DNA of 64,000 nucleotides from Cliona cf. orientalis (lineage: Eukaryota; Porifera; Demospongiae; Clionaida; Clionaidae): the NCBI GenBank assembly GCA_963930775.1, contig OZ005701.1, positions 5,959,669-6,023,668 of the forward strand. Direction: 5' to 3'. Shown in pieces: positions 47,668 through 62,515 of the stretch. The notes under the pieces were generated by a model. It saw only the letters and a list, made by a program, of their open reading frames with translations, was not told the origin of the DNA and did no database searches. Position numbers and translations under genes: made by a program. Position 1 is the first letter of the stretch, and each line of letters begins with the position of its first letter.

Positions 47668-50600
47668 ATGAAGAAAATGGCTGGTGTACTGTGCAAGATG
47701 GCCCTGTTGATGTCTACATCTTTCATTTCTGGTAAGCATTTATGTGTACCGTTTCAAGATGATGTCACTGATGATATGGGTTAATGTTGAAGAGATAATA
47801 GTGGCATATCGCATCTGAGCGACTACAACGAAAATCGGTGAAGGCTAGCTAGGTGCATGATATTCTGGACTCCATGCAAGCCGCCGGGGCTGGTACCGTC
47901 CAGACTATTCTCAGTGCAGCTGCATGCACGGCACGCGTACGCATGCGCATGGGGAAGTGGTGAACTAGTGTGCCACGGTTTGCCAGCCTTTAGCTAAATA
48001 ATCACCGTCATGCATACCGTATTCGCTTGATCAGACGCCGCTCTCGATTAGTCGCCGCTCTCGAATAGTCGCCGCACCTCCGGAAGTGCTGAACGAAATA
48101 GTCGCCGCTCTCGAATAGTAGCCGCGCCACGCCTACTATTCGAGAATACCAGCACGTGGACATGCCTCGCGACTCGTTTTCAATGGCAGGCACACGATAA
48201 ACAGTCTAGAACAAGTTCTAACTTTCTTCTACATCAGCAACGGGGCCAGAATCTCCTAGATCAGTGGTATCAATCGACTGTTTCTCAAAGGATTGTCTCT
48301 CTGGCATTAATAAACGCCGCTCTCGAATAGTCGCCGCTCTCGAATAAACGCCGCACAAACTCGGGCGATGAAATAAATAGTAGCCGCGGCGTCTGATCGA
48401 GCGAATACGGTAATAATAATATAGGAAAAATTCAAGTCACACCGTAGTGAGCTCGAGATCCGCAGGGACTATACATTATCTTTCTGAATAAAGAGGATTC
48501 AATATCTATACATGTAACCATCCGCTGAGCGACTCGTTTGGCGAGGCCCACGAGCGTCATATGGCACTTCCAAACGAAAAATTAGCGTCGCGTTGTGACA
48601 TGTCCCCCCAAAAGACTGTATACTATGCCGGATACTATAGTCTATAGTAGAGTATACAAGGTCTCGACCGTAAATTTGGAACCGTAAATTTGGAACCGGA
48701 AGTACCCATATGTAGGTAATGGTCGTTCGCGCGGGGTAATGCTCTAGCTCTGAGCTCTCTAATAGTAATAATGTTAAGGTACCATTTAATTGCGTGGGCG
48801 TGAGCGTCAGGAATGGCTAATTCAATTAGCGAATCGTGAAGGGGCGTGGCCGAAGAGGCCATACGAGTGCTTTTGGTCGAAGGTGGGCGTGTCCAGAATC
48901 GGCCAGGGATGATTATGCGCGTGTAATTAGCGACCGGAAGTGGCCCCTGAAGAAAAGGCCGGTAATTGCCCACATCAAAGCAAGATCAAAGCATTCTTGC
49001 TTAACTATTAACCGCAACGACAAAAAAAAAAAAAAAAAAAAAAAAAAAGCCTTATTAGGCCTAATTAAGCATGTGGGCGTGTTCCTGGCACTGTGTGGAG
49101 TGCGTGCGTGTGCGTTAATGCAGGTTTTATTGCTTCCGATTGGGCGTGGCTTCACGGGCCAGTGCTTGGATATCGGCGCCTGGGACTTGGCCTCGGCGAT
49201 AGGTGGGCGTGTCCCGGAAGCGGCGGTGACCTTTGAACCCCGCGAGGAGGCTTTGGGGGCGTGGCAGGAGGTCAAAGGTGAGGCCATGTCAGTTAATGAG
49301 GCACTGTACGCCGGTGCGATCGAGGGGCCCGTACGGCTGGACGGAAGCTGACGATGGTTTGAAGCGGATGTGGTTGCGATGACGTGTTGTTACTCCGCCC
49401 ACACAGGAAATGAGGTGAGCTCTTGTGTGGGCGGTGTGGCAGAACGGCGTCCAAGTGTTTGTGTGTGTTTTGGCCTTGAGGAAGCTGTGTGTTTTAATTG
49501 GGATTGATTGTGGGCTTCCGGTGGACATCCGGTGGTTAGTAGGCATTTGATTGAGAATGGTGGTCCTTGGGGAACAGGGTGGGGCTGTTTTGGGCGTGGC
49601 CTGGCCCCTCCCTTCCGGCTCGGCTTCCGGTCCATGGAGGATATTAAATGAACACTTCCGGCTCTAGCAGCCACACCCCTGAGACCTGTGCAATTAAAAG
49701 GGCGTGGTTACACACCATGCACCTCACTAATGACTTTGATGTGGTTTAGGTGTCATATCCCCCACCTCACGCCCACGCAATTTAATGGTACCTTAACTGC
49801 AATCAATTTAGCTTCAGGTGAAGTACGTGAGTTAATTTCTCCTCTCTCCTCAACTGGACGGAATCATGTCTGTGCCAACGAACCACTAATTTACTCGTGT
49901 GAGATACATGGAGAATACCTGCAGTGGATGCTGGACCATACACCTTCCCTTCGCGCGATCTTGCATGGAGGTCTAAAAGTAGATACTGTACAGATGATTT
50001 CAAATCAGACCATAAAAGCTATACTTACAATGAACGAAGAGCTTAATAATGTGACAGCAGGAGAGTCAAAACGGCTTCGTTCGGCTCTACTCATAGATAC
50101 TTCTCAAATTGCCGGTTTACACAACATCTCCTGTTCCTCCAATGAAGGAGATGTGCGAGAACAAAGCTTCCAAGTTGCAGGTGAAAATAATTATACTGTA
50201 TACATTGATGTATAATATATTAAAATTTAATATTGTCCATAATTATTATACATGTACAGAAATCCCAACCAAGCCCATAATTCTCAAGCATACTCTACCA
50301 TACTCTCAAGTGCTTTCCATTGAATGGGGTGCACCAAATAACAGAGATAGATTTGATCTTGATCACTACAGTGTTCAGGTACTCATAATAATGCCTGAAT
50401 CTGTTGAGGAACCCTATAATATGTATTATTTCAATGGAACAACTCGTGAACCAAGGTATTTTGTTGATCTTCGGCCGTTTGCATCAGGAAGTAGCATTAC
50501 AATACATAGTGCAAATATCACAGCTGTAAGCAAGTGCAGACAACACAGTCCTGTAGCAACAGCACTGCTTATGTCAAACATCAAAATTCCCTCGCTAGAT

Positions 50601-50964: not shown

Positions 50965-51691
50965 TATAATATTATTATTATTGTTATGTTATTGTATGTT
51001 ATTGTTACACATGTCTATAATAATGTCTTCTTTATAAGACTAAGACTCAGTATCCATGGATGGATTATTTTGTTCCGTAACTACCGGTCCCTTTCTGTGT
51101 CAATGTAAACCTCCTTTATATGCATCAATATTACGTAATCTTATGACATTGTGATAATACCCCCCTCGATAATTATTATGTGACTCGATAATTAATATAA
51201 GATGCATGGTGATACTATATGCAGGCTGAAAAGGGAATGTGGAAAAGAACCGTTGGGAAGCCACAGGGAATCGAACCCAGGTCGGTGGCTTGAGCTGCCA
51301 TGCATATCTGCCAATCAAATCGTACCTGCATGTAGCAGCTATACTATATTATTATTATTATTATTCAGAAATAGAATCACACGGTGATAACCAAACTTTC
51401 TCAATAAAATTTAAATAATATGCATTCTGCACAGAATAATATAATTTGACATCCTGCATGGGCAATCAATGGCATTGATTGGTATATGTTATGAAAATGT
51501 AGGTTACCATAACTTGATTTAATACAACAATAATTGTCCCAAAATCAGCTATATACAGTGTAGCTATAGTCAGAGATATTTGCATATATACATGTGCAGC
51601 TACAACTTGAAGCATTATATAAAATTATAAGCTACTGCATACTATAAGACTGATAGGCTCAAGCATTAATCTGAGTGATATAGTATCAAAA
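50965..51691. other. Spacer between receptors C and A; possible tRNA-derived repeat
   Basis: AT-rich. On the minus strand at about 51215-51320 there is CTGGGTTCGATTCCC, a good polymerase III B box, preceded by GGCAGCTCA. It does not fold as an intact tRNA, so it is probably a SINE head. No gene otherwise. Confidence 0.45.
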
Positions 51692-53346
51692 ATGAAAGTG
51701 GTCTCTGCATTCTTGGCCTTTGCTATGCTTGTTTTTTCAGGTATGTTATAGAAAAGTTAAACCATGGCTCTGCACATATTATAATTCAAAGGCTATATAT
51801 ATACTGCATGCCAGTATAATAATAATATTATGTGAAAAATATTATCTGATTTATTATGCTTCCCTACAATCATGCATGCCTTTAGGTTGCAGCAGTTCAT
51901 CATTGACACCAACTGGTGTGCTGTACTTATGCCTGGAAGAGCCAATAGAGATTACATGTGAATCTACTGGATTGCTAATGGACTGGATGATTGTATTCAG
52001 CTCACTATCCCACTCCGATATAATACAGACTTACATAGCAGCCGATCCAGAGGGACTTATTCATACAGTGGCCAGCAATGGACTCGACATGGTATTCAAC
52101 CTGACGGTGAACAGACCATCACAATTTGAGTCGATGCTGACTGTGACTTGGAGAGGTGATACTGCAGTCTCCAATTCCACAGTGCAATGTGGACAAGAAT
52201 CCAACAGCAAGGCAGTGATTGTCGTTCAAGGTAAGTCTCCTATATATTGCATCTAATCTACACACCAAAATTATTACTAACTAGTTTTAATTGAATATAC
52301 TTGACATTAATACTCATGCAGACCCACCTGCTTCACCAATAATCTTGAACCATTCCTTGATGGCTACCAATGGCAGTAAGAATGGCACTGTTGTTACGCT
52401 AGAATGGCTCCCTGCTGCTAGTGATGCTACATTGGTTAGTGATTTGACATACACGGTTGTGGCTTTTCCTTCGGTGGTCTCACTAACGTCCATGTTGACA
52501 ACATCAAACACATCCATTCAACTATTCATCCTTTACAATCAGGAATACAACATCACAGTAGTGGCTAGCAACTGTGTTGGAAACAGTACACCAGCTAAAA
52601 CTACCCTCACAGTCGGTAATTATACTAACTTAGTTGATCTTGCAATTGTCAATAAATTCTTGGTAACAAGAATGCGATTATCTCTCTATGATCACCTACT
52701 ACTAGGGTACTGTGCTCGTCCAATTACTGGACCCAATGTGGCTATAATGGAGAACAGTATCAGTGGATTAGAAGGATCAATGATCACCTACTACTGCCAG
52801 TGGATGCCAAATGAACATATGGTGGCCACCTGTTTGAGCAATGGAAGTTGGAGTCCTGATCCACGAGACATGGAGTGTCCCAGCCATACTATCACACACT
52901 ATTACAATACTACTACTACTACTACTACTACTGTCTATTCTGAAACTGAGCAAGGTAACTAGATTATTATTATTATTATCCTTACAGATGTCAATTCATG
53001 TATAGAAATTGTCATGCATGCACTCACTAACAGGTATTTTGAATGGATATTATCCTTATGTGTATATAATGGTTACACTATAGGTACAGGAAATGAATCG
53101 GAATCAGATCCACTGAATCTAGTCCTGGTTATTTCAGTATCATTTGCAACCTGTTCATTCCTCATCCTACTGTGTGGTCTTCTTCTAGGTGTTTTCATTT
53201 CTAGATGCTATTGGAAACATGCATTATTGAAGAATAAAACAAAATCACCTCCTGCACCTATTTATGAAGAAGTAACCTGCAATGAGCTGAATTCTTTCAA
53301 ACTTGAAGACAATGTGGCATATGGTCCAATTCCATACTGCATATAA
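51692..53346 (+). CDS. Ig-FN3-sushi transmembrane receptor, short tyrosine tail (receptor A)
   Basis: Five exons in phase 1 (51692-51740, 51886-52230, 52322-52615, 52706-52954, 53084-53346) encode 399 residues. Exon 1 is a signal peptide. Exon 2 is an Ig-like domain (ITCESTGLLMDWM ... STVQCGQES). Exon 3 is a fibronectin III-like domain (DPPASPIIL, VTLEWLPAAS, YNITVVASN). Exon 4 is a sushi/CCP module (YCARP ... YYCQWMP ... ATCLSNGSWSPDPRDMEC) followed by a Thr-rich stalk. Exon 5 is a stalk, one TM helix (about 325-349) and a 50-residue tail. The tail has Y373EEV and Y392GPI; VAYGPI fits the ITIM pattern, and the second pair is spaced wider than a classic ITAM. The extracellular exons are almost identical to receptor B next door. 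A perfect 31-bp hairpin follows the stop codon. Ligand and function unknown. Confidence 0.85.
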
Positions 53347-53892
53347 AGTTACATTGCCACTTCAAGTTGCCGCATTATTATGCGCTGATGGAATAGAATT
53401 ATATCATCATTCCCTGTTGTATTATATATACAACAGGGAATGATGATATAATTCTATTACAGTTACAGGCAGTATCACACTGATTATATTGTGACCATAG
53501 CTGACATGATATAGTTCAAGTTCAGGCTCATACATATCGGATTCTGTGTTGATAGCAGTAAAATAATTATTTAATGTAAATTCATTTTGGGACAATTTTG
53601 TATATAAAAATAATCACGGTATCCTGTACACTACTGTCACAGCACACATCGATGCAATCACAATTGGATATCCAATACCATGGGGAAAAGTTACATGTAT
53701 TTGTTATTTAAGTCCCAAGGATGTTTGCTTGGTGAATGACAGTTTGACGTAATTGTGGCTTCATTGTTATCGATAGCAATGTACACAAGTTATAAACAGC
53801 TGCAGCATAATACTTAACGGCAGCTATATCCTATATAATAAGTAAGACTGACAGGCTCAAGCATTCTATGTTCTGAGTGACACAGCATCAAA
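53347..53892. other. Spacer between receptors A and B
   Basis: Contains the 3' hairpin of receptor A and, from about 53820, promoter-proximal sequence similar to that before receptor A (GACAGGCTCAAGCATT). No other feature seen. Confidence 0.6.
53392..53458 (+). repeat. Perfect 31-bp inverted repeat downstream of receptor A stop
   Basis: Arms 53392-53422 and 53428-53458 are exactly complementary around a 5-nt loop (TATAT). It starts 46 bp after the receptor A stop codon, so it would be a long hairpin in the 3' untranslated RNA if transcribed. No match to it was seen elsewhere in the window. Confidence 0.9.
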
Positions 53893-55297
53893 ATGAAAGA
53901 AGAGGTGGTCACTGCATTCTTGACCTTTGCTATACTAGTTTCAGGTATGTGTTAAAGTATGTACCATTGATATGAAGCTCGGGCCCCAGCCTGTACAAAG
54001 TGTACAGTATATGTTTTACATAATCATGCATAAGCTGCAGCACTTATACAAGAGTCCCAAGATTATTATAATTAAAATCATAGGATTTGAGTGCATGGAG
54101 ATCAAACCAACACACTCACATCTCCTCTACTAGTTGAGCTACGAAGCCCCTAGTATGTGGTGGGGAGAAAGGGCATAGCTTTCAAATGCTTAGTTCTTGC
54201 ATGGTACACATTAGTCCTAATAATATAAGGAACATGTAGTACACACCTCTTTTATAATAAATAATTATCACTCAGGTTGCAGCAGTTCATCATTGACACC
54301 AACTGGTGTGCTGTACTTATGCCTGGAAGAGCCAATAGAGATTACATGTGAATCTACTGGATTGCTAATGGACTGGATGATTGTATTCAGCTCACTATCC
54401 CACTCCGATATAATACAGACTTACATAGCAGCCGATCCAGAGGGACTTATTCATACAGTGGCCAGCAATGGACTCGACATGGTATTCAACCTGACGGTGA
54501 ACAGACCATCACAATTTGAGTCGATGCTGACTGTGACTTGGAGAGGTGATACTGCAGTCACCAATTCCACAGTGCAATGTGGACAAGAATCCAACAGCAA
54601 GGCAGTGATTGTCGTTCAAGGTAAGTCTCCTATATATTGCATCTAATCTACACACCAAAATTATTACTAACTAGTTTTAATTGAATATACTTGACATTAA
54701 TACTCATGCAGACCCACCTGCTTCACCAATAATCTTGAACCATTCCTTGATGGCTACCAATGGCAGTAAGAATGGCACTGTTGTTACGCTAGAATGGCTC
54801 CCTGCTGCTAGTGATGCTACATTGGTTAGTGACTTGACATACACGGTTGTGGCTTTTCCTTCGGTGGTCTCACTAACGTCCATGTTGACAACATCAAACA
54901 CATCCATTCAACTATTCATCCTTTACAATCAGGAATACAACATCACAGTAGTGGCTAGCAACTGTGTTGGAAACAGTACACCAGCTAAAACTACCCTCAC
55001 AGTCGGTAATTATACTAACTTAGTTGATCTTGCAATTGTCAATAAATTCTTGGTAACAAGAATGCGATTATCTCTCTATGATCACCTACTACTAGGGTAC
55101 TGTGCTCGTCCGATTACTGGACCCAATGTGGCTATAATGGAGAACGGTATCAGTGGATTAGAAGGATCAATGATCACCTACTACTGCCAGTGGATGCCAA
55201 ATGAACATATGGTGGCCACCTGTTTGAGCAATGGAAGTTGGAGTCCTGATCCACGAGACATGGAGTGTCCCAGCCATACTATCACACACTATTACAA

Positions 55298-55334
<37 letters not shown>

Positions 55335-57397
55335 GTCTATTCTGAAACTGAGCAAGGTAACTAGATTATTATTATTATTATCCTTACAGATGTCAATTCA
55401 TGTATAGAAATTGTCATGCATGCACTCACTAACATATTTTGAATGGATATTATCCTTATGTGTATGTAATGGTTACACTATAGGTACTGGTTCCAATAAT
55501 GTTATTGTGCCAGCCACACTTAGTCTAGTGGTAGTTGCTATCTCTACTGGCATATCAGTCTTCATTTTTATTACTCTATACGTCACCCATTGGAGAGGTG
55601 AGGATCACGATCATACACATGCAATGTCATGCATACAACTTTTATGAACTACGAATAATCACTAGTGTGCAAAGGGAAAATGGTCACTGACTCTCCTTTA
55701 CGATTATCTGAGGGAAGCAATCAGGAAATGCATGACATCATTACCATACAGGAGGAAGGGATATACAGCTTACTGCAAGCAGAAGATAAAGATCAGGTGC
55801 ATAACCAGGGACTGTACCAAGGGGTAGATATAGGGTGGCTAGCCACCCCCTTCACTAGTTCTTATTATTTATGCAACGTAGTACAGGAGACGTCCACCAT
55901 TATTAATCAGCCATCCCCCGCTTGCATCAGCATGGTTTACTATGGGTAACCACCCCATCAGCAACCTTCCATGCAAATAATATTATTATCTGGATCAGCA
56001 CCTGATAACCTATTGTATCTGGTATTACCTAATTAAATTTTAGTATTATGTTTCTCGTTTACAGCTGAGTGATTATGAAAAAAAGCCAACACAGGGAGAG
56101 TTAGTTTATGCCGATATTGGTAACTCTGCCTCCATACATATTCAAAGTGCTGCTCCTGCCTCTATGCCATACTCCAGCTTATCCTTGCAGTTAGATGATA
56201 GCCAAGTTCAGTATGCCGATATAAAACCTCATCAGTCCACTACCAACACCAGTGTTATGGAAGTGAACGATGGTATGTACCATGAATTAAAAATCTGATC
56301 AATGCCGGGGGGTGGGGGGTGGGGGGTGGGGGAGGGGGGGAGGATGAGGGGGATATGCTCGTGAATAAGTGAATGTCAGATATAGCTATCTACATGCATG
56401 TACTATCAAAGCATGACTAGTTATTCTCCATAAATTTGAAAGTGTATGCATTGTGCAATAAGCTAGCTTGACCTTGTATGAGATCATGGAAAGCCATTAC
56501 AATCACCATAATCATTACCCTATTACTCGTGTGTAATAATTATATTATGCACACATACTCCTGACATGACATATTGTATATACACACATACAATGTCATG
56601 CAATAAAGTAAGCACCCAAGCAAACACAACATCACCAATGTTGTATGACGATTCCCTGGATCTCGATACACTACTCATTCAGCTCCGATCGGAAGTGACT
56701 CTCAAATGGCGAGAGTTTGGTCTGGCTGTTGGACTGGCGGAGGACCATCTCGATAAGTATTCTACGTACCCGCCAGAAGAATGCATTGTGGAAGTGCTGG
56801 ATGTGTGGCTTAGAAACTACAACTGTGGCAACACTGATGTCGGTATGATCAGGAAACCAACATGGATGGATGTGGCTAGAGCTTTGAGAGAGATTGAGTT
56901 GCATCAGTTGGCAAACAAAATATTGAGCCTGTACAAAGATGGTAAATTTTTTGTAGAATCAAGATTGTGCATGTTAATAATAATGCCGTAATTATGATTA
57001 CAGGTGAACGTGAGTCTGACATCATGAATGCAGTACCCAAGCAGCATAATTGTAAGTAAATTAACCTAGTCTAATAGCTAACATTATTGTAATAATTATA
57101 TAACTCATGATCATTCAGATATCCCTCTTACTGATGATGAGCTTCCTCCTCCACTGCCTTCCAAGATGACTGATTTTGACGAGGAGATGGAACTACCCCC
57201 AGAGCAGGAAGAGCTGGGAACTGAAGAGACTCCACCTCCCCTACCCCCACCTTACAACGAAACTAGCTTGAAGCAAACGTGAGTTCACCCTTCATGATCA
57301 CCAATAATACACAATACCAATCAAGTCGTGCTGAAATTTTTGCAGATTTTGCTCCTCAGTACCACCTATCCCACCCAAGAACAACTTACAGATATAA
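53893..57397 (+). CDS. Ig-FN3-sushi receptor with ITAM/ITIM-like motifs and Death domain (receptor B)
   Basis: Eleven exons (53893-53944, 54276-54620, 54712-55005, 55096-55356, 55484-55597, 55666-55796, 56065-56272, 56609-56941, 57004-57051, 57119-57278, 57346-57397) encode 665 residues. Signal peptide, Ig-like domain (18-132), FN3-like (133-230), sushi plus Thr stalk (231-317) and a TM helix (about 326-348). The cytoplasmic part has Y389SLL, Y414ADI, Y435SSL and Y449ADI. LVYADI and VQYADI fit the ITIM pattern; Y435 and Y449 have ITAM spacing (10 residues between motifs). Residues about 486-577 form a Death domain (LDTLLIQLR ... LKWREFGLAVGL ... VLDVWLRNY ... PTWMDVARALREIELHQLANKI). The C-terminus has PPLPSK and PPIPPK (SH3 type) and PPPY (WW type). 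Tyrosine signalling plus Death-domain recruitment in one immune-like receptor is inferred. The exon 8 acceptor (AAAG) is weak. Confidence 0.82.
54051..54215 (-). repeat. tRNA-derived SINE, copy 1
   Basis: Read on the minus strand: GGCTTCGTAGCTCAACTAGT (A-box-like), then TTGGTTTGATCTCC (B-box-like), then a tail containing AATCTTGGGACT. Order and tail match the copy at 58519-58705. Receptor B intron 1. Confidence 0.65.
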
Positions 57398-59285: not shown

Positions 59286-59835
59286 CTGTTTGTGATGGTT
59301 CCATTGAGGAGCTGACTTTCGTGAGTGATTGGATTTCTGACACATGTTCAACGACCGAAGACTCCACTATTACCATTCACTGCAGTGATGGTGGATCCTC
59401 TAACTTCACACTAGAGTCAGTCTGTAGCAGTGAAGGAGAATGGAAAAAAGAATCTACTCCAGTGACTCAAGCTCAATGGCCTTCAAGTTATCAATGGATC
59501 TATAGTAATGAATTAATGCACTTAACTTGTGAATTTTAATAGGGAGTACTAGTACGACCACATTTTCACAGAATTCAGTCTCTTCCTTCCCTCCAATTTA
59601 CACACTGCCAATTGCTTCGGGCTTCAGTTTTGCATTTGGGCTTCTCTTGGGCATGATACTCACTGCGTGCATTGTGAAACTGAGGATGAAGGCATCATCT
59701 CTTACTAATCAAGATCAGAAACAGGTGTCTATGGCCCAGGTACCAGTTTATGAGGAATTAGCAGGTGATCAGGAGCATACTTCTCCCGGTTGCAAAGTTG
59801 TGAGCAATGTAGCATACGGCCCTGTGTGCAATTAA
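59286..59835 (+). pseudogene. Truncated receptor: sushi module plus TM and tyrosine tail (cassette E)
   Basis: Exon 59286 to about 59486 reads VCDGSIEELTF ... DTCSTTEDSTITIHCSDGG ... VCSSEGEWKK, a sushi-like module with four Cys. The second exon, 59543-59835, encodes a Ser/Thr stalk, one TM helix (FSFAFGLLLGMILTACIV) and a tail with VYEEL and a VAYGPV near the C-terminus. The tail closely parallels receptor A (IYEEV, VAYGPI). Both acceptors are phase 1, but the intervening intron would be only about 56 bp with a weak donor (GTTATC). No signal peptide, Ig or FN3 exons were found between receptor B and here. It is either a decayed third receptor or an alternative 3' cassette for an upstream gene. 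Confidence 0.6.
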
Positions 59836-60356
59836 ATAGAACTATAAACCGCTCTTATAAGATACGCTGATTTTTAACACTAAGTCTTGATTAGTTACCA
59901 CTATTGCTGCATATACAGTGCATAATATCATTGTATACATGTATGTTTGTGCCTTATTCATGACATAATAATAATAATAATATTCATTCCTGTAGTCATA
60001 AAAATAAACTGGTATGCAGTTACATCAGCTCTAATTTCTATAAATAACAACATGCAACGTGTACTGTGTATATAAAAGATCACTTAATCTCCATATTAGA
60101 CTAAAGTGAATAGTTATTAAAGAGCCATGACTACAAACTGTTGCAAGGTAAACAATATTAATATAGGAACCAAACTAGCATGATTAAAATAATAATATTA
60201 TTATATTATGCATTATTCACACAATCCAGAACCTCGTGTATACACTTATTGGAGCATGTATAATAATATCATGCATGCCACAGTTAGGTGAGTTAATTTT
60301 ATGGGACGAGTGAGGATGCATACATCGTGACAATGTTGTTGTTTTGTTTTTTTTAG
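59836..60356. other. Spacer, no gene recognised
   Basis: AT-rich. The ATG at 60127 followed by a possible donor gives only seven residues, no signal peptide and the wrong phase for the next Ig exon. Confidence 0.5.
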
Positions 60357-61295
60357 TTTCCAGTGAAGTACGGAGCTTCCATTCATCACTTGCCACAGCT
60401 GGAAGAAGACATCCTTGTAGAGATGAACTGTTGATCTTCACCTGTGAAGTGACTGGGTCTCGTCTTGATTGGAGAGTGGATTCAAATTCAGTCCATCGAG
60501 TTCGCTACTTTGGCACAGATAGAGTTGATGACGTACGCACAGTTAATGGAGTAAGCATCAAATTTCGTACTATCCTGACTGGTAATGAAGAGGTCACTAG
60601 AACTACAGGATCAAGCAGACAGCTTACTTCAACTCTAATTGCAGAACTCTCTCAATCATCAGTAATCCAACACAATATCTCCTGCTCCTCACACACACAG
60701 ACACAGGTCCTCCAAGTCCAGGTTGCAGGTAACTTAGTAATTAAATTAAAATTTAAACATTGATAGCCATTTTGATTATGAGCATAATAATAATAAGCCA
60801 TTGGCGATCATTTTCCATGCAGAAAGACCAAGACGACCACAAAATTTCACGGTCGTTATGCATCCAGACGAACATTCACTTGCATTACAATGGGATGCTC
60901 CTGCCAACATTGATAACTTTGATATAGAATACTACACAATCCAAGTGCTCTCATCTGTAGAATCTGATGGTAAAGAATACGAACTTAATGTAACTGGCTC
61001 AGAACTAGAGTACCCCTTTGGAGTGATAATGAATTCGAACACTTCGTCAGCCCAGTATGAATCGAGTAATTATAACTTGACGGTGTCAGCTGTTAGCAAA
61101 TGCTCCCAGCAAGGTCCAGAAGCATCTGCAGCTGCAACAATTACTCTTCCTATGTATACACCAAAAGTCAACACTAATAGTTCTATAGCTGCAGATTGCA
61201 TCTCTGACTCTAGCTCTGCTATCACATTTAACTCTAATTGTGATGCACTGTATGTTATTGCTCTATCGATAGCTACTCTTATGATAATAATATGA
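60357..61295 (+). CDS. Ig-FN3 protein with hydrophobic C-terminus (receptor D, 5' end missing)
   Basis: Two exons are clear: 60357-60728 and 60823-61295. The first is an Ig-like domain (SSEVRSFHSS, CRDELLIFTCEVTGSRLDWRV, far Cys in HNISCSSH) and is the sister of receptor C exon 2 (shared EVR.., HNISCSS). The second is FN3-like (RPRRPQNFTV, LALQWDAPANIDNFDIEYYTIQVL, LTVSAVSKCSQQ) and continues without an intron into a Ser/Asn-rich spacer with two Cys and a hydrophobic end (YVIALSIATLMIII). The end is typical of a GPI signal. The Ig acceptor is phase 1, so a phase-1 leader exon is expected, but I found none downstream of receptor B. It may lie further off, or the gene may be broken. Confidence 0.7.
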
Positions 61296-61739
61296 CTACC
61301 AATTATTACTATTCATAATGATAATTCTTTGAGCGGAGCAGGTCCTGGAGCAGAGTAAGTCTAGAGCTGATCATGTAGTCATCTTGGTCACGCTTAACTA
61401 TTGTATGGTGCATGAGATGTGTGGCACCCCAATAAGGTCAAGCAACTACGTACTATACTTAGAACATTGTATGATACATACATGCTAGCTTGTTGGCCGT
61501 CACTTAGCAACCAAAAGTTTTTAGGCAAATTATAGGCTACTAGAAAGTATATGTATGCATGCATGTGTGTTGGGCTTCACCAATAGCCAGCAACCAATTG
61601 AAAATTTTTATAGAAGTTTCCCGATACCAACCTGTGTGGGTATACAGTAACTTATACCCTTACTTTTACTTTGAAGCTAGTTAGTTAGTAAGGAAGTCCT
61701 TGGAAAGTCACAGCGTAGAGCTAGCTCTGATGAAGTCTT
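61296..61739. other. Spacer, no gene recognised
   Basis: Intergenic sequence between receptor D and the TPMT-like pseudogene; no repeats or exons stand out. Confidence 0.5.
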
Positions 61740-62309
61740 AATCAACAGCACTACCTTCCACAAGTAGCGGCTGAAAGTCCACACGGGAAAAGTTGAGTCT
61801 TCTTTTAGATCACAGAGTTCGGTAGTCTTCTTGACATCATACTCCTGTCAATTGTGAGGGTTTGAAATGCTCTCTGTATAGAGAATGGTCAATTCCTCTT
61901 CTGTAACTGTGAATGGTATCATTGGGTGTTCAGAGTGCTCATAATCAAAAAATGAGAGAACAATCCTGCCACCTGGCTTTGTTACAGTAAAAGAATTCAT
62001 CAGTTCAGCATACATGGTTCTCTTGATATCGGTGAAGTCGAAAGACCCTATAGATCCGTGGTCAAAGATACAATCAAAACCACCTAGATTATCCTACACG
62101 AAACGGTCCGACACCACATATACAGTATATGGTTATATAGATTTATCGTGTGCAGTACACGTATACACAGGCATCTCAATTCCTTCAATCCTGCACAATT
62201 TTTCACTATTATATGCTAAACCATTCTTCACGAAAAACTGCTTGATGGCCAACTCAGATCATTCAATACCAACGACATGATGTCCTCTCTCGGCAAACCA
62301 CAGCATGAT
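61740..62309 (-). pseudogene. TPMT-like S-methyltransferase pseudogene fragment
   Basis: After a CAG acceptor the minus strand reads IMLWFAERGHHVVGIE then a stop, SELAIKQFFVKNGLAY ..., later FDCIFDHGSIGSFDFTDIKRTMYAELMNSF, GGRIVLSFFDYEHSEHPM and, after a frameshift near 61875, DVKKTTELCDLKED. The order matches the thiopurine S-methyltransferase family (WFADRGH, VVGVEISE, IWDRGA, DRK). There are at least three in-frame stops (TGA in the GIE-SEL motif, TAA, TAG) plus the frameshift. The first exons are not seen. Live relatives methylate small S-, N- or Se-containing molecules; this copy cannot. Confidence 0.8.
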
Positions 62310-62515
62310 CTGTACGGTGGCCGAGAAGGGCCATTCCAAACTTCCAATTTCTCAATTTCCATTTCTGAATTGATCATTTCTAACTTTGCATTTCTAAAGT
62401 TTAGCTTCGAATGGGCTGGTAACACAGCAGTATTACAAGTTGAGACATCCATTCCAAATTTACCTCACAGTTAGCTCAGCAGCTTTAAGTTAGTGAGTGA
62501 ATGTTGAATGACATT

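What the first reader, a model, noticed from the sequence alone, without database searches (positions are those of the whole stretch)
51692..57397. Paired receptors: the same ectodomain on two unrelated signalling tails
Seen: receptors A and B are adjacent, same strand, with Ig-FN3-sushi ectodomains differing by about two residues plus four extra Thr codons, yet with unrelated TM and cytoplasmic exons. A has a 50-residue tail with two Tyr motifs; B has a 310-residue tail with four Tyr motifs and a Death domain. Known: mammalian KIR, SIRP and LILR families, and invertebrate allorecognition genes such as Hydractinia Alr, use Ig ectodomains with ITAM/ITIM-type tails. Inference: these could read the same ligand with opposite or graded outputs, perhaps in self/non-self or microbial recognition.
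Basis: partly seen in the sequence, partly recalled or inferred. Interest (0 to 1): 0.92.

Follow-up and report, generated by a model that had tools for sequence, protein, structure and literature searches.

The report
Paired receptors sharing one outer part
Two neighbouring genes in what is probably a sponge genome encode receptors with practically the same outside part but quite different inside signalling tails, and the same pattern recurs in relatives nearby, which suggests that one binding surface is wired to two outputs.

Summary
Genes A (399 aa) and B (661 aa) lie in tandem; their ectodomains differ by two residues plus four Thr codons, while TM and tail exons are unrelated. Beyond the finding: a 1.2-kb block, introns included, is 99.5% identical and starts at the Ig-exon acceptor, while the 5' flank and signal exon are about 10% diverged. 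So A and B are older paralogues whose ectodomain was recently homogenised, most simply by gene conversion. The design recurs: among 13 modelled relatives ectodomains do not group by tail type (AU p 1.2e-6); in 6 of 6 cross-type pairs DNA similarity stays within the Ig-to-sushi exons, in 4 of 4 same-type pairs it runs on into both ends. B's tail has two ITIM-consensus tyrosines (also in F, I and one distant gene; not seen in M) and a Death domain; 112 further Death-exon matches lie genome-wide. A's tail has two YxxPhi sites, no strict ITAM. Best reading: a non-vertebrate paired-receptor system resembling Siglec-11/16. Opposite outputs, ligand, expression and allorecognition are untested; the Ig fold was not confirmed, the species not verified.

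The parts
51692..53346 (+). Gene A, short-tail receptor, 399 aa, 5 exons: 51692-51740, 51886-52230, 52322-52615, 52706-52954, 53084-53346
   Evidence: open frame, GT-AG introns
53893..57397 (+). Gene B, Death-tail receptor, 661 aa, 11 exons: 53893-53944, 54276-54620, 54712-55005, 55096-55356, 55484-55597, 55666-55796, 56065-56272, 56621-56941, 57004-57051, 57119-57278, 57346-57397
51884..53090 (+). homogenised block, copy in A (Ig acceptor to the first bases of the TM exon)
   Evidence: 6 mismatches in 1205 aligned positions
54274..55490 (+). homogenised block, copy in B
51645..51746 (+). 5' flank and signal exon of A, diverged from B 53843-53950 (10 of 97 aligned positions differ, plus gaps)
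   Evidence: Fisher p 1.8e-8 against the block
53084..53346 (+). A: TM and short tail with PIYEEV and NVAYGPI
55484..55597 (+). B: TM exon, unrelated to A's beyond the first bases
56065..56272 (+). B: exon with LVYADI and VQYADI (ITIM consensus) and YSSL
56621..56941 (+). B: Death-domain exon
   Evidence: (a paralogue passes the Pfam cut-off)
57004..57397 (+). B: proline-rich C-terminal exons
59533..59835 (+). partial gene C: A-type TM and tail (VPVYEEL...NVAYGPV); no Ig-FN3 match found just upstream
60314..61292 (+). third kind of member: Ig-like and FN3 exons ending in a hydrophobic C-terminus with no cytoplasmic tail

Best explanation
A and B are paired receptors: one ligand-binding ectodomain presented on two different signalling tails. 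They are old, adjacent paralogues, each with its own 5' end and tail. Their ectodomain exons are kept alike by exchange between the two gene types, most simply gene conversion (shown: the sequence pattern; inferred: that conversion is the mechanism). Inferred working: a ligand crosslinks both. A's short tail offers two phospho-tyrosine sites, the first of pYEEV type. B's tail offers two ITIM-type sites that could recruit an SH2-SH2 phosphatase (such gene layouts are in this genome) and a Death domain that could nucleate an adaptor assembly. Tyrosine phosphorylation of B may choose between a phosphatase (brake) and a Death-domain output, while A gives the other arm. Identical ectodomains would keep both outputs tied to one ligand, or stop a microbe from binding only one of them.
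For: Block identity with diverged flank (Fisher 1.8e-8); A/B ectodomain dS 0.010, against 0.22-0.49 in the five other ectodomain comparisons used (a sixth, K/M, dropped for frame trouble). Tail type not one group on the ectodomain tree of 13 genes (4 changes, 0% of bootstrap trees with one; AU p 1.2e-6). Cross-type DNA similarity confined to the Ig-to-sushi exons in 6 of 6 pairs of D, E, H, F, I, against similarity from upstream through the tail in 4 of 4 same-type pairs. Both YxxPhi sites present in 10 of 10 short tails tested (8 of this genome, 2 homologues). Two ITIM-consensus sites in 4 of 5 Death tails tested (B, F, I, L049 gene; not M). Death fold. SH2-SH2-phosphatase order at two loci. 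Ig, short-tail and Death exon matches all on JGI contigs of the same length, 6801 bp.
Against: No expression, ligand, phosphorylation or polymorphism data. Per tail, ITIM matches are only modestly above shuffles (B P 0.037, A P 0.155; L049 exon P 0.023). Death tail M lacks the ITIM pair in the pieces read and P's tail was not resolved. No short tail is a strict ITAM. E versus H short tail shows omega 1.02, that is no sign of constraint there (H looks broken), and the B/F tail omega of 0.15 rests on saturated dS. D and H look broken, and K's tail match holds a stop. On the tree F and I sit together inside the D,E,H group, so that group alone needs only one tail change. Away from the two C13 clusters no short tails were found with two single-sequence queries, so most Death-tail genes have no detected partner.
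Confidence: 0.6

Rival explanations
1. Neutral concerted evolution: tandem paralogues exchange ectodomain DNA by chance, the near-identity only reflects a very recent conversion, and no functional pairing exists.
For: dS 0.010 says the A/B event is very recent; gene conversion is common in tandem arrays (general knowledge). Ectodomain omega 0.26-0.38 in five comparisons shows purifying selection but nothing about pairing.
Against: The pattern recurs across cluster members; the A/B breakpoints fall at the ectodomain limits; the two tail types stay distinct and keep their tyrosine sites.
Confidence: 0.2
2. Not opposite signals: the short tail's YxxPhi sites are AP-2 type endocytic signals (recalled motif), so A is a scavenging or decoy partner that limits ligand for B.
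For: All 10 short tails tested have YxxPhi twice and none a strict ITAM; a third, tail-less member type sits beside them.
Against: The first site reads PxYxE in 7 of the 8 tails of this genome, which looks like an SH2 ligand (recalled).
Confidence: 0.13
3. One unit with alternative tails: junctions up to the TM exon are phase 1, so read-through transcripts could splice A's ectodomain to B's (or gene C's) tail, and the second ectodomain copy is partly redundant.
For: Phases are compatible; partial gene C has a tail but no ectodomain match just upstream.
Against: Both A and B have their own start codon, signal exon and similar 5' flank.
Confidence: 0.05
4. Assembly artefact: the second ectodomain copy was created in assembling the genome.
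For: Near-identical sequence in tandem.
Against: Flanks, intron 1, signal exons and tails all differ. Both Ig exons are in an 8.9-Mb contig, and a protein cluster of two members on one 95,599-base contig matches them. The homologous parts apparently share one contig elsewhere.
Confidence: 0.02

Closest known systems
[quoted passage not shown]
   Same: Adjacent Ig-type receptor genes; extracellular region homogenised by gene conversion over about 2-3 kb; tails differ (PMC5701461, passages seen).
   Different: Siglecs lie head-to-head about 9 kb apart and Siglec-16 signals through an ITAM adaptor; here genes are head-to-tail about 0.5 kb apart, one tail bears a Death domain, and the ectodomain is Ig-like plus FN3 plus sushi.
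Botryllus fester / fester co-receptor (FcoR) loci
   Same: Invertebrate Ig and sushi receptors in linked pairs with ITIM or hemITAM tails (PMC12065747, passages seen).
   Different: There uncle fester derives from a duplication of the 3' exons of fester with an unrelated N-terminal half, the mirror image of this case; no Death domain was mentioned in the passages seen. Homology not tested.
Hydractinia Alr proteins
   Same: Candidate allorecognition genes with ITIM/ITAM motifs (as cited in PMC12065747; the primary papers were not read).
   Different: No FN3-sushi-Death architecture known to me (recalled); homology not tested.
Fas/CD95 tyrosine switch
   Same: A Death-domain receptor whose output is set by Src-family kinases and SHP-1 acting on its tyrosines (PMC4778973, passages seen).
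   Different: In Fas the tyrosines lie inside the Death domain; here they are in a separate exon before it. The ectodomain is of another kind.
Sponge Ig-TIR receptors and Ig plus CARD genes
   Same: Sponge Ig receptors with an intracellular TIR domain, and a gene with Ig domains and a CARD that changes expression after microbial signals (PMC6208332, passages seen).
   Different: TIR or CARD instead of ITIM-type tyrosines and Death; no paired tails described in those passages.

Membership tests
Paired receptors (as defined in PMC5701461) | Strongly homologous extracellular domains | tested here: met
   2 residues and 4 Thr codons differ
Paired receptors (as defined in PMC5701461) | Different cytoplasmic signalling regions | tested here: met
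Paired receptors (as defined in PMC5701461) | Opposite roles in signalling | tested here: inconclusive
   B: 2 ITIM-consensus sites; A: no strict ITAM, one site fits the ITIM consensus
Paired receptors (as defined in PMC5701461) | Overlapping expression | not testable with these tools
   no RNA data
Paired receptors (as defined in PMC5701461) | Ectodomain homogenised by conversion (seen in Siglec-11/16; not strictly defining) | tested here: met
   (pattern; mechanism inferred)
ITIM receptor | [SILV]xYxx[ILV] in the cytoplasmic tail (consensus recalled) | tested here: met
   B LVYADI and VQYADI; also F, I and L049 gene; not in M as read; P's tail unresolved
ITIM receptor | Phosphorylation and SH2-phosphatase binding | not testable with these tools
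   SH2-SH2-phosphatase gene order is present in the genome
ITAM receptor (gene A) | Yxx[IL]x6-8Yxx[IL] (consensus recalled) | tested here: not met
   0 of 10 short tails tested; J, K, N have the spacing but end in V
Death-domain protein (gene B) | Death fold | tested here: met
TNF-receptor-type death receptor | Cysteine-rich TNFR repeats outside | tested here: not met
   no TNFR match in Pfam scans of A and B; sub-cut-off fn3 and Sushi matches in paralogues
Ig superfamily | Ig fold in the first domain | tested here: inconclusive
   no Pfam match; invariant Cys/Trp/Cys in the 10 aligned exons; model pLDDT 48
Sponge Ig-TIR receptor | Cytoplasmic TIR domain | tested here: not met
   Pfam scans of A and B list no TIR
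Hydractinia Alr / Botryllus fester-FcoR | Sequence homology | not tested
   no such sequences were compared

The most novel reading that the evidence does not exclude
An early-branching animal runs a large receptor repertoire (over 100 Death-tail exons) in which a single tail combines ITIM-type tyrosines with a Death domain as a one-molecule switch, and in at least two clusters short-tail partners are kept on the same ectodomain by repeated gene conversion. Paired-receptor logic would then have arisen outside vertebrates and tied recognition directly to a death or inflammatory assembly.
Probability: 0.35. Interest if true: 0.9.

Novelty: new variant of a known kind. Interest (0 to 1): 0.75.

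Why it matters
Paired receptors with conversion-homogenised ectodomains are described from vertebrates (PMC5701461), and a 2025 review places ITIM/ITAM allorecognition signalling 'from cnidarians to mammals' (PMC12065747). A sponge case would push this logic to another early animal branch and, in these tails, join it to a Death domain. It makes a concrete question testable: do two tails on one ectodomain read the same ligand in sponge immunity or tissue compatibility? The listings I saw of my searches (only the top 15-20 titles where more matched) showed no such sponge family; that library is only part of the literature.

Tried and rejected
Rejected: an assembly copy (differing flanks, signal exons and tails); a simple view that tail types are two clades (AU p 1.2e-6); ITAM membership of the short tail (0 of 10 strict); TNFR-type death receptor.

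Led nowhere: PDB sequence search with the Ig-exon profile gave no credible match (best an antibody light chain at E 0.29), and the Death profile gave only weak RIPK1 and TRADD matches among unrelated ones. The Ig structure model was too poor to search with. Scans of genome contigs and viral contigs found no relative. The K/M dN/dS value is not used because the K frame held 8 stops in that script. The C11 ectodomain relatives were only screened by tblastn.
Full report
WHAT IS THERE. The window lies at C13:5959669-6023668 of a 216.8-Mb genome in 149 contigs. Gene A (51692-53346) has five exons and 399 residues; gene B (53893-57397) has eleven exons and 661 residues; their introns are all GT-AG. 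Both read signal exon, Ig-like exon, FN3 exon, sushi exon with a Thr stalk, then TM. The junctions up to the TM exon are phase 1.

THE SHARED BLOCK. A 51884-53090 and B 54274-55490 align with 1199 matches, 6 mismatches and two gaps (the 12-bp Thr repeat and 2 bp in an intron), introns included. The left edge is the AG of the Ig-exon acceptor; the right edge is a few bases into the TM exon. Intron 1 and the rest of the TM and tail exons do not align (best local matches 14 and 12 bp). The 5' flank plus signal exon do align, but with 10 mismatches in 97 positions (Fisher p 1.8e-8 against the block). In the ectodomain dS is 0.010 with 2 synonymous and 2 non-synonymous changes over 279 codons. So A and B are older paralogues whose ectodomain was recently overwritten. 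Gene conversion is the simplest mechanism; unequal exchange is not excluded.

IT RECURS. The search of the own genome with the ectodomain gave 78 matches at E <= 1e-3, the best ones in C13:6.01-6.12 Mb, others on C13:7.2 Mb, C11, C2 and elsewhere. I fetched C13:6023000-6132999 and 7214000-7243999, and two C11 stretches. On C13 they hold short-tail relatives (D, E, H; J, K, N, O; partial C in the window) and Death-tail relatives (F, I; M, P). A tree of Ig plus FN3 for 13 genes (8 short, 5 Death) needs 4 changes of tail type, all forced by well-supported branches; 0% of bootstrap trees make a tail type one group, and holding the Death rows together is rejected (AU p 1.2e-6). A+B, K+M (85% identical) and D,E,H+F,I each mix the two tails; within the last group F and I sit together (97/99), so it needs only one change of its own. 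Each of the five Death-tail genes has a short-tail gene as the nearest A/B-type relative upstream on the same strand. In three of five (A-B, K-M, O-P) I found no other family exon between; E-F and H-I have an exon of the third kind between, and H-I also an extra short-tail copy. I did not annotate unrelated genes in between.

THE SANDWICH. Among D, E, H, F and I, 4 of 4 same-type pairs are similar from upstream of the Ig exon through the tail, and 6 of 6 cross-type pairs are similar only within the Ig-to-sushi exons (blastn stretches of at least 60 bp). Each type therefore keeps its own 5' end and tail and shares the middle. K adds a case of mosaic origin: its ectodomain is 82% identical in DNA to M's, its tail 79% and 90% identical to those of N and J, and a remnant of an M-like TM region lies between. 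K's tail match holds a stop, D has a stop in the sushi exon and stops in its tail match, and H a frame break in FN3, so some members look broken.

THE TAILS. I tested 10 short tails: 8 of this genome (A, C, E, H, J, K, N, O) and two homologues from other assemblies (P0031, P0032). All 10 have two YxxPhi sites, the first behind P and one hydrophobic residue; in the 8 the spacer varies from 7 to 22 residues, none is a strict ITAM, J, K and N have ITAM-like spacing but end in V, and the second site fits the ITIM consensus in A, C and O. B's tail has LVYADI and VQYADI, conserved in F and I (LVYADV, [VI]QYADL) and, in a more distant gene on C2 (L049), as VVYAVL and VEYAKI; M has only YTLL in the piece tested, so 4 of 5 Death tails tested carry the pair; P's tail was not resolved. 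Alone, B's two matches are only mildly improbable (P 0.037 by shuffling; A 0.155); conservation is the better argument. Between B and F tails omega is 0.15 but dS is saturated; F/I tails give 0.42, and the E/H short tails 1.02, no sign of constraint in that pair.

ECTODOMAIN IDENTITY. Pfam fn3 (20.0 bits in M; cut-off 25) and Sushi (18.0 bits in E; cut-off 20.7) support these domains weakly in paralogues. The first domain has conserved Cys/Trp/Cys, but no Pfam match, and its model is poor (pLDDT 48): Ig-like, not proven Ig.

OTHER SAMPLES. Homologues of the Ig exon (9), the Death exon (20) and the short tail (3), each list including one entry of the window's own, were found among 5.8 billion proteins. 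P0024 (Ig, 85%), P0032 (sushi plus short tail, 73%) and P0006 (Death, 82%) all come from a JGI contig 6801 bp long, which by size could just hold an A-B pair. I could not fetch it.

HOW IT PROBABLY WORKS. Shown: one ectodomain, two tail types, recurrent sharing. Inferred: shared ligand, kinase and phosphatase wiring, and a Death-domain assembly. The genome has SH2-SH2-phosphatase match order at C8:9936138-9938107 (+) and C4:7510920-7513694 (-), so ITIM-type effectors are plausible. Fas shows that tyrosine phosphorylation can flip a Death receptor between outputs (PMC4778973, passages). Siglec-11/16 shows that conversion can keep two receptors on similar ligands (PMC5701461, passages).

PRINT CHECK. 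The listings of searches showed no sponge paired-receptor or ITIM-plus-Death family; of these, 19, 47 and 64 matched more papers (278, 25, 589) than the 20, 20 and 15 listed. A review reports ITIM/ITAM allorecognition signalling from cnidarians to mammals (PMC12065747, passages); in sponges, Ig-TIR receptors and an Ig plus CARD gene are reported (PMC6208332, passages), and a review ties sponge Ig proteins mainly to adhesion (PMC11999971, passages).

VERDICT. A real, recurrent and informative case: a new variant of the paired-receptor kind. Direction of signalling, ligand and biological role remain open.

Noticed in passing
G000 C2:11.0-13.9 Mb, C3:4.2-4.4, C10:7.58-7.63, C1:3.3-4.5 Mb: Over 100 relatives of B's Death-domain exon are clustered genome-wide; the one such gene read (L049, C2) has Ig-like, FN3, sushi, TM, two ITIM-consensus sites and Death.
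   Followed up: partly
window 60314-61292; also near 74282, 68988 (-), 145208 and 157127 in coordinates continued past the window: A third kind of member with Ig-like and FN3 exons; the window copy ends in a hydrophobic stretch with no cytoplasmic tail (GPI-like or tail-less), perhaps a decoy form. The ends of the other copies were not resolved.
   Followed up: partly
window 59533-59835: A-type TM and tail exon (gene C) without an Ig-FN3 match just upstream; remnant, or an alternative 3' end.
   Followed up: no
window 48774-49803: 1-kb element with an inverted 97.9% copy at C13:6051427-6052456.
   Followed up: no
C13:6062409-6071235 (downstream of the window): About 8.8-kb tandem array of roughly 190-bp units (judged from the offsets).
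   Followed up: no
window 61628-62313: DNA with an 86.6% copy at C13:6109167-6109838; reads by eye like a minus-strand small-molecule methyltransferase, not tested.
   Followed up: no
window 48035-48387: Repeats rich in CGCCGCTCTCGAATAGT.
   Followed up: no
C4:7445030-7513694: Cluster of SH2 and tyrosine-phosphatase matches, suggesting several SHP-like genes.
   Followed up: no
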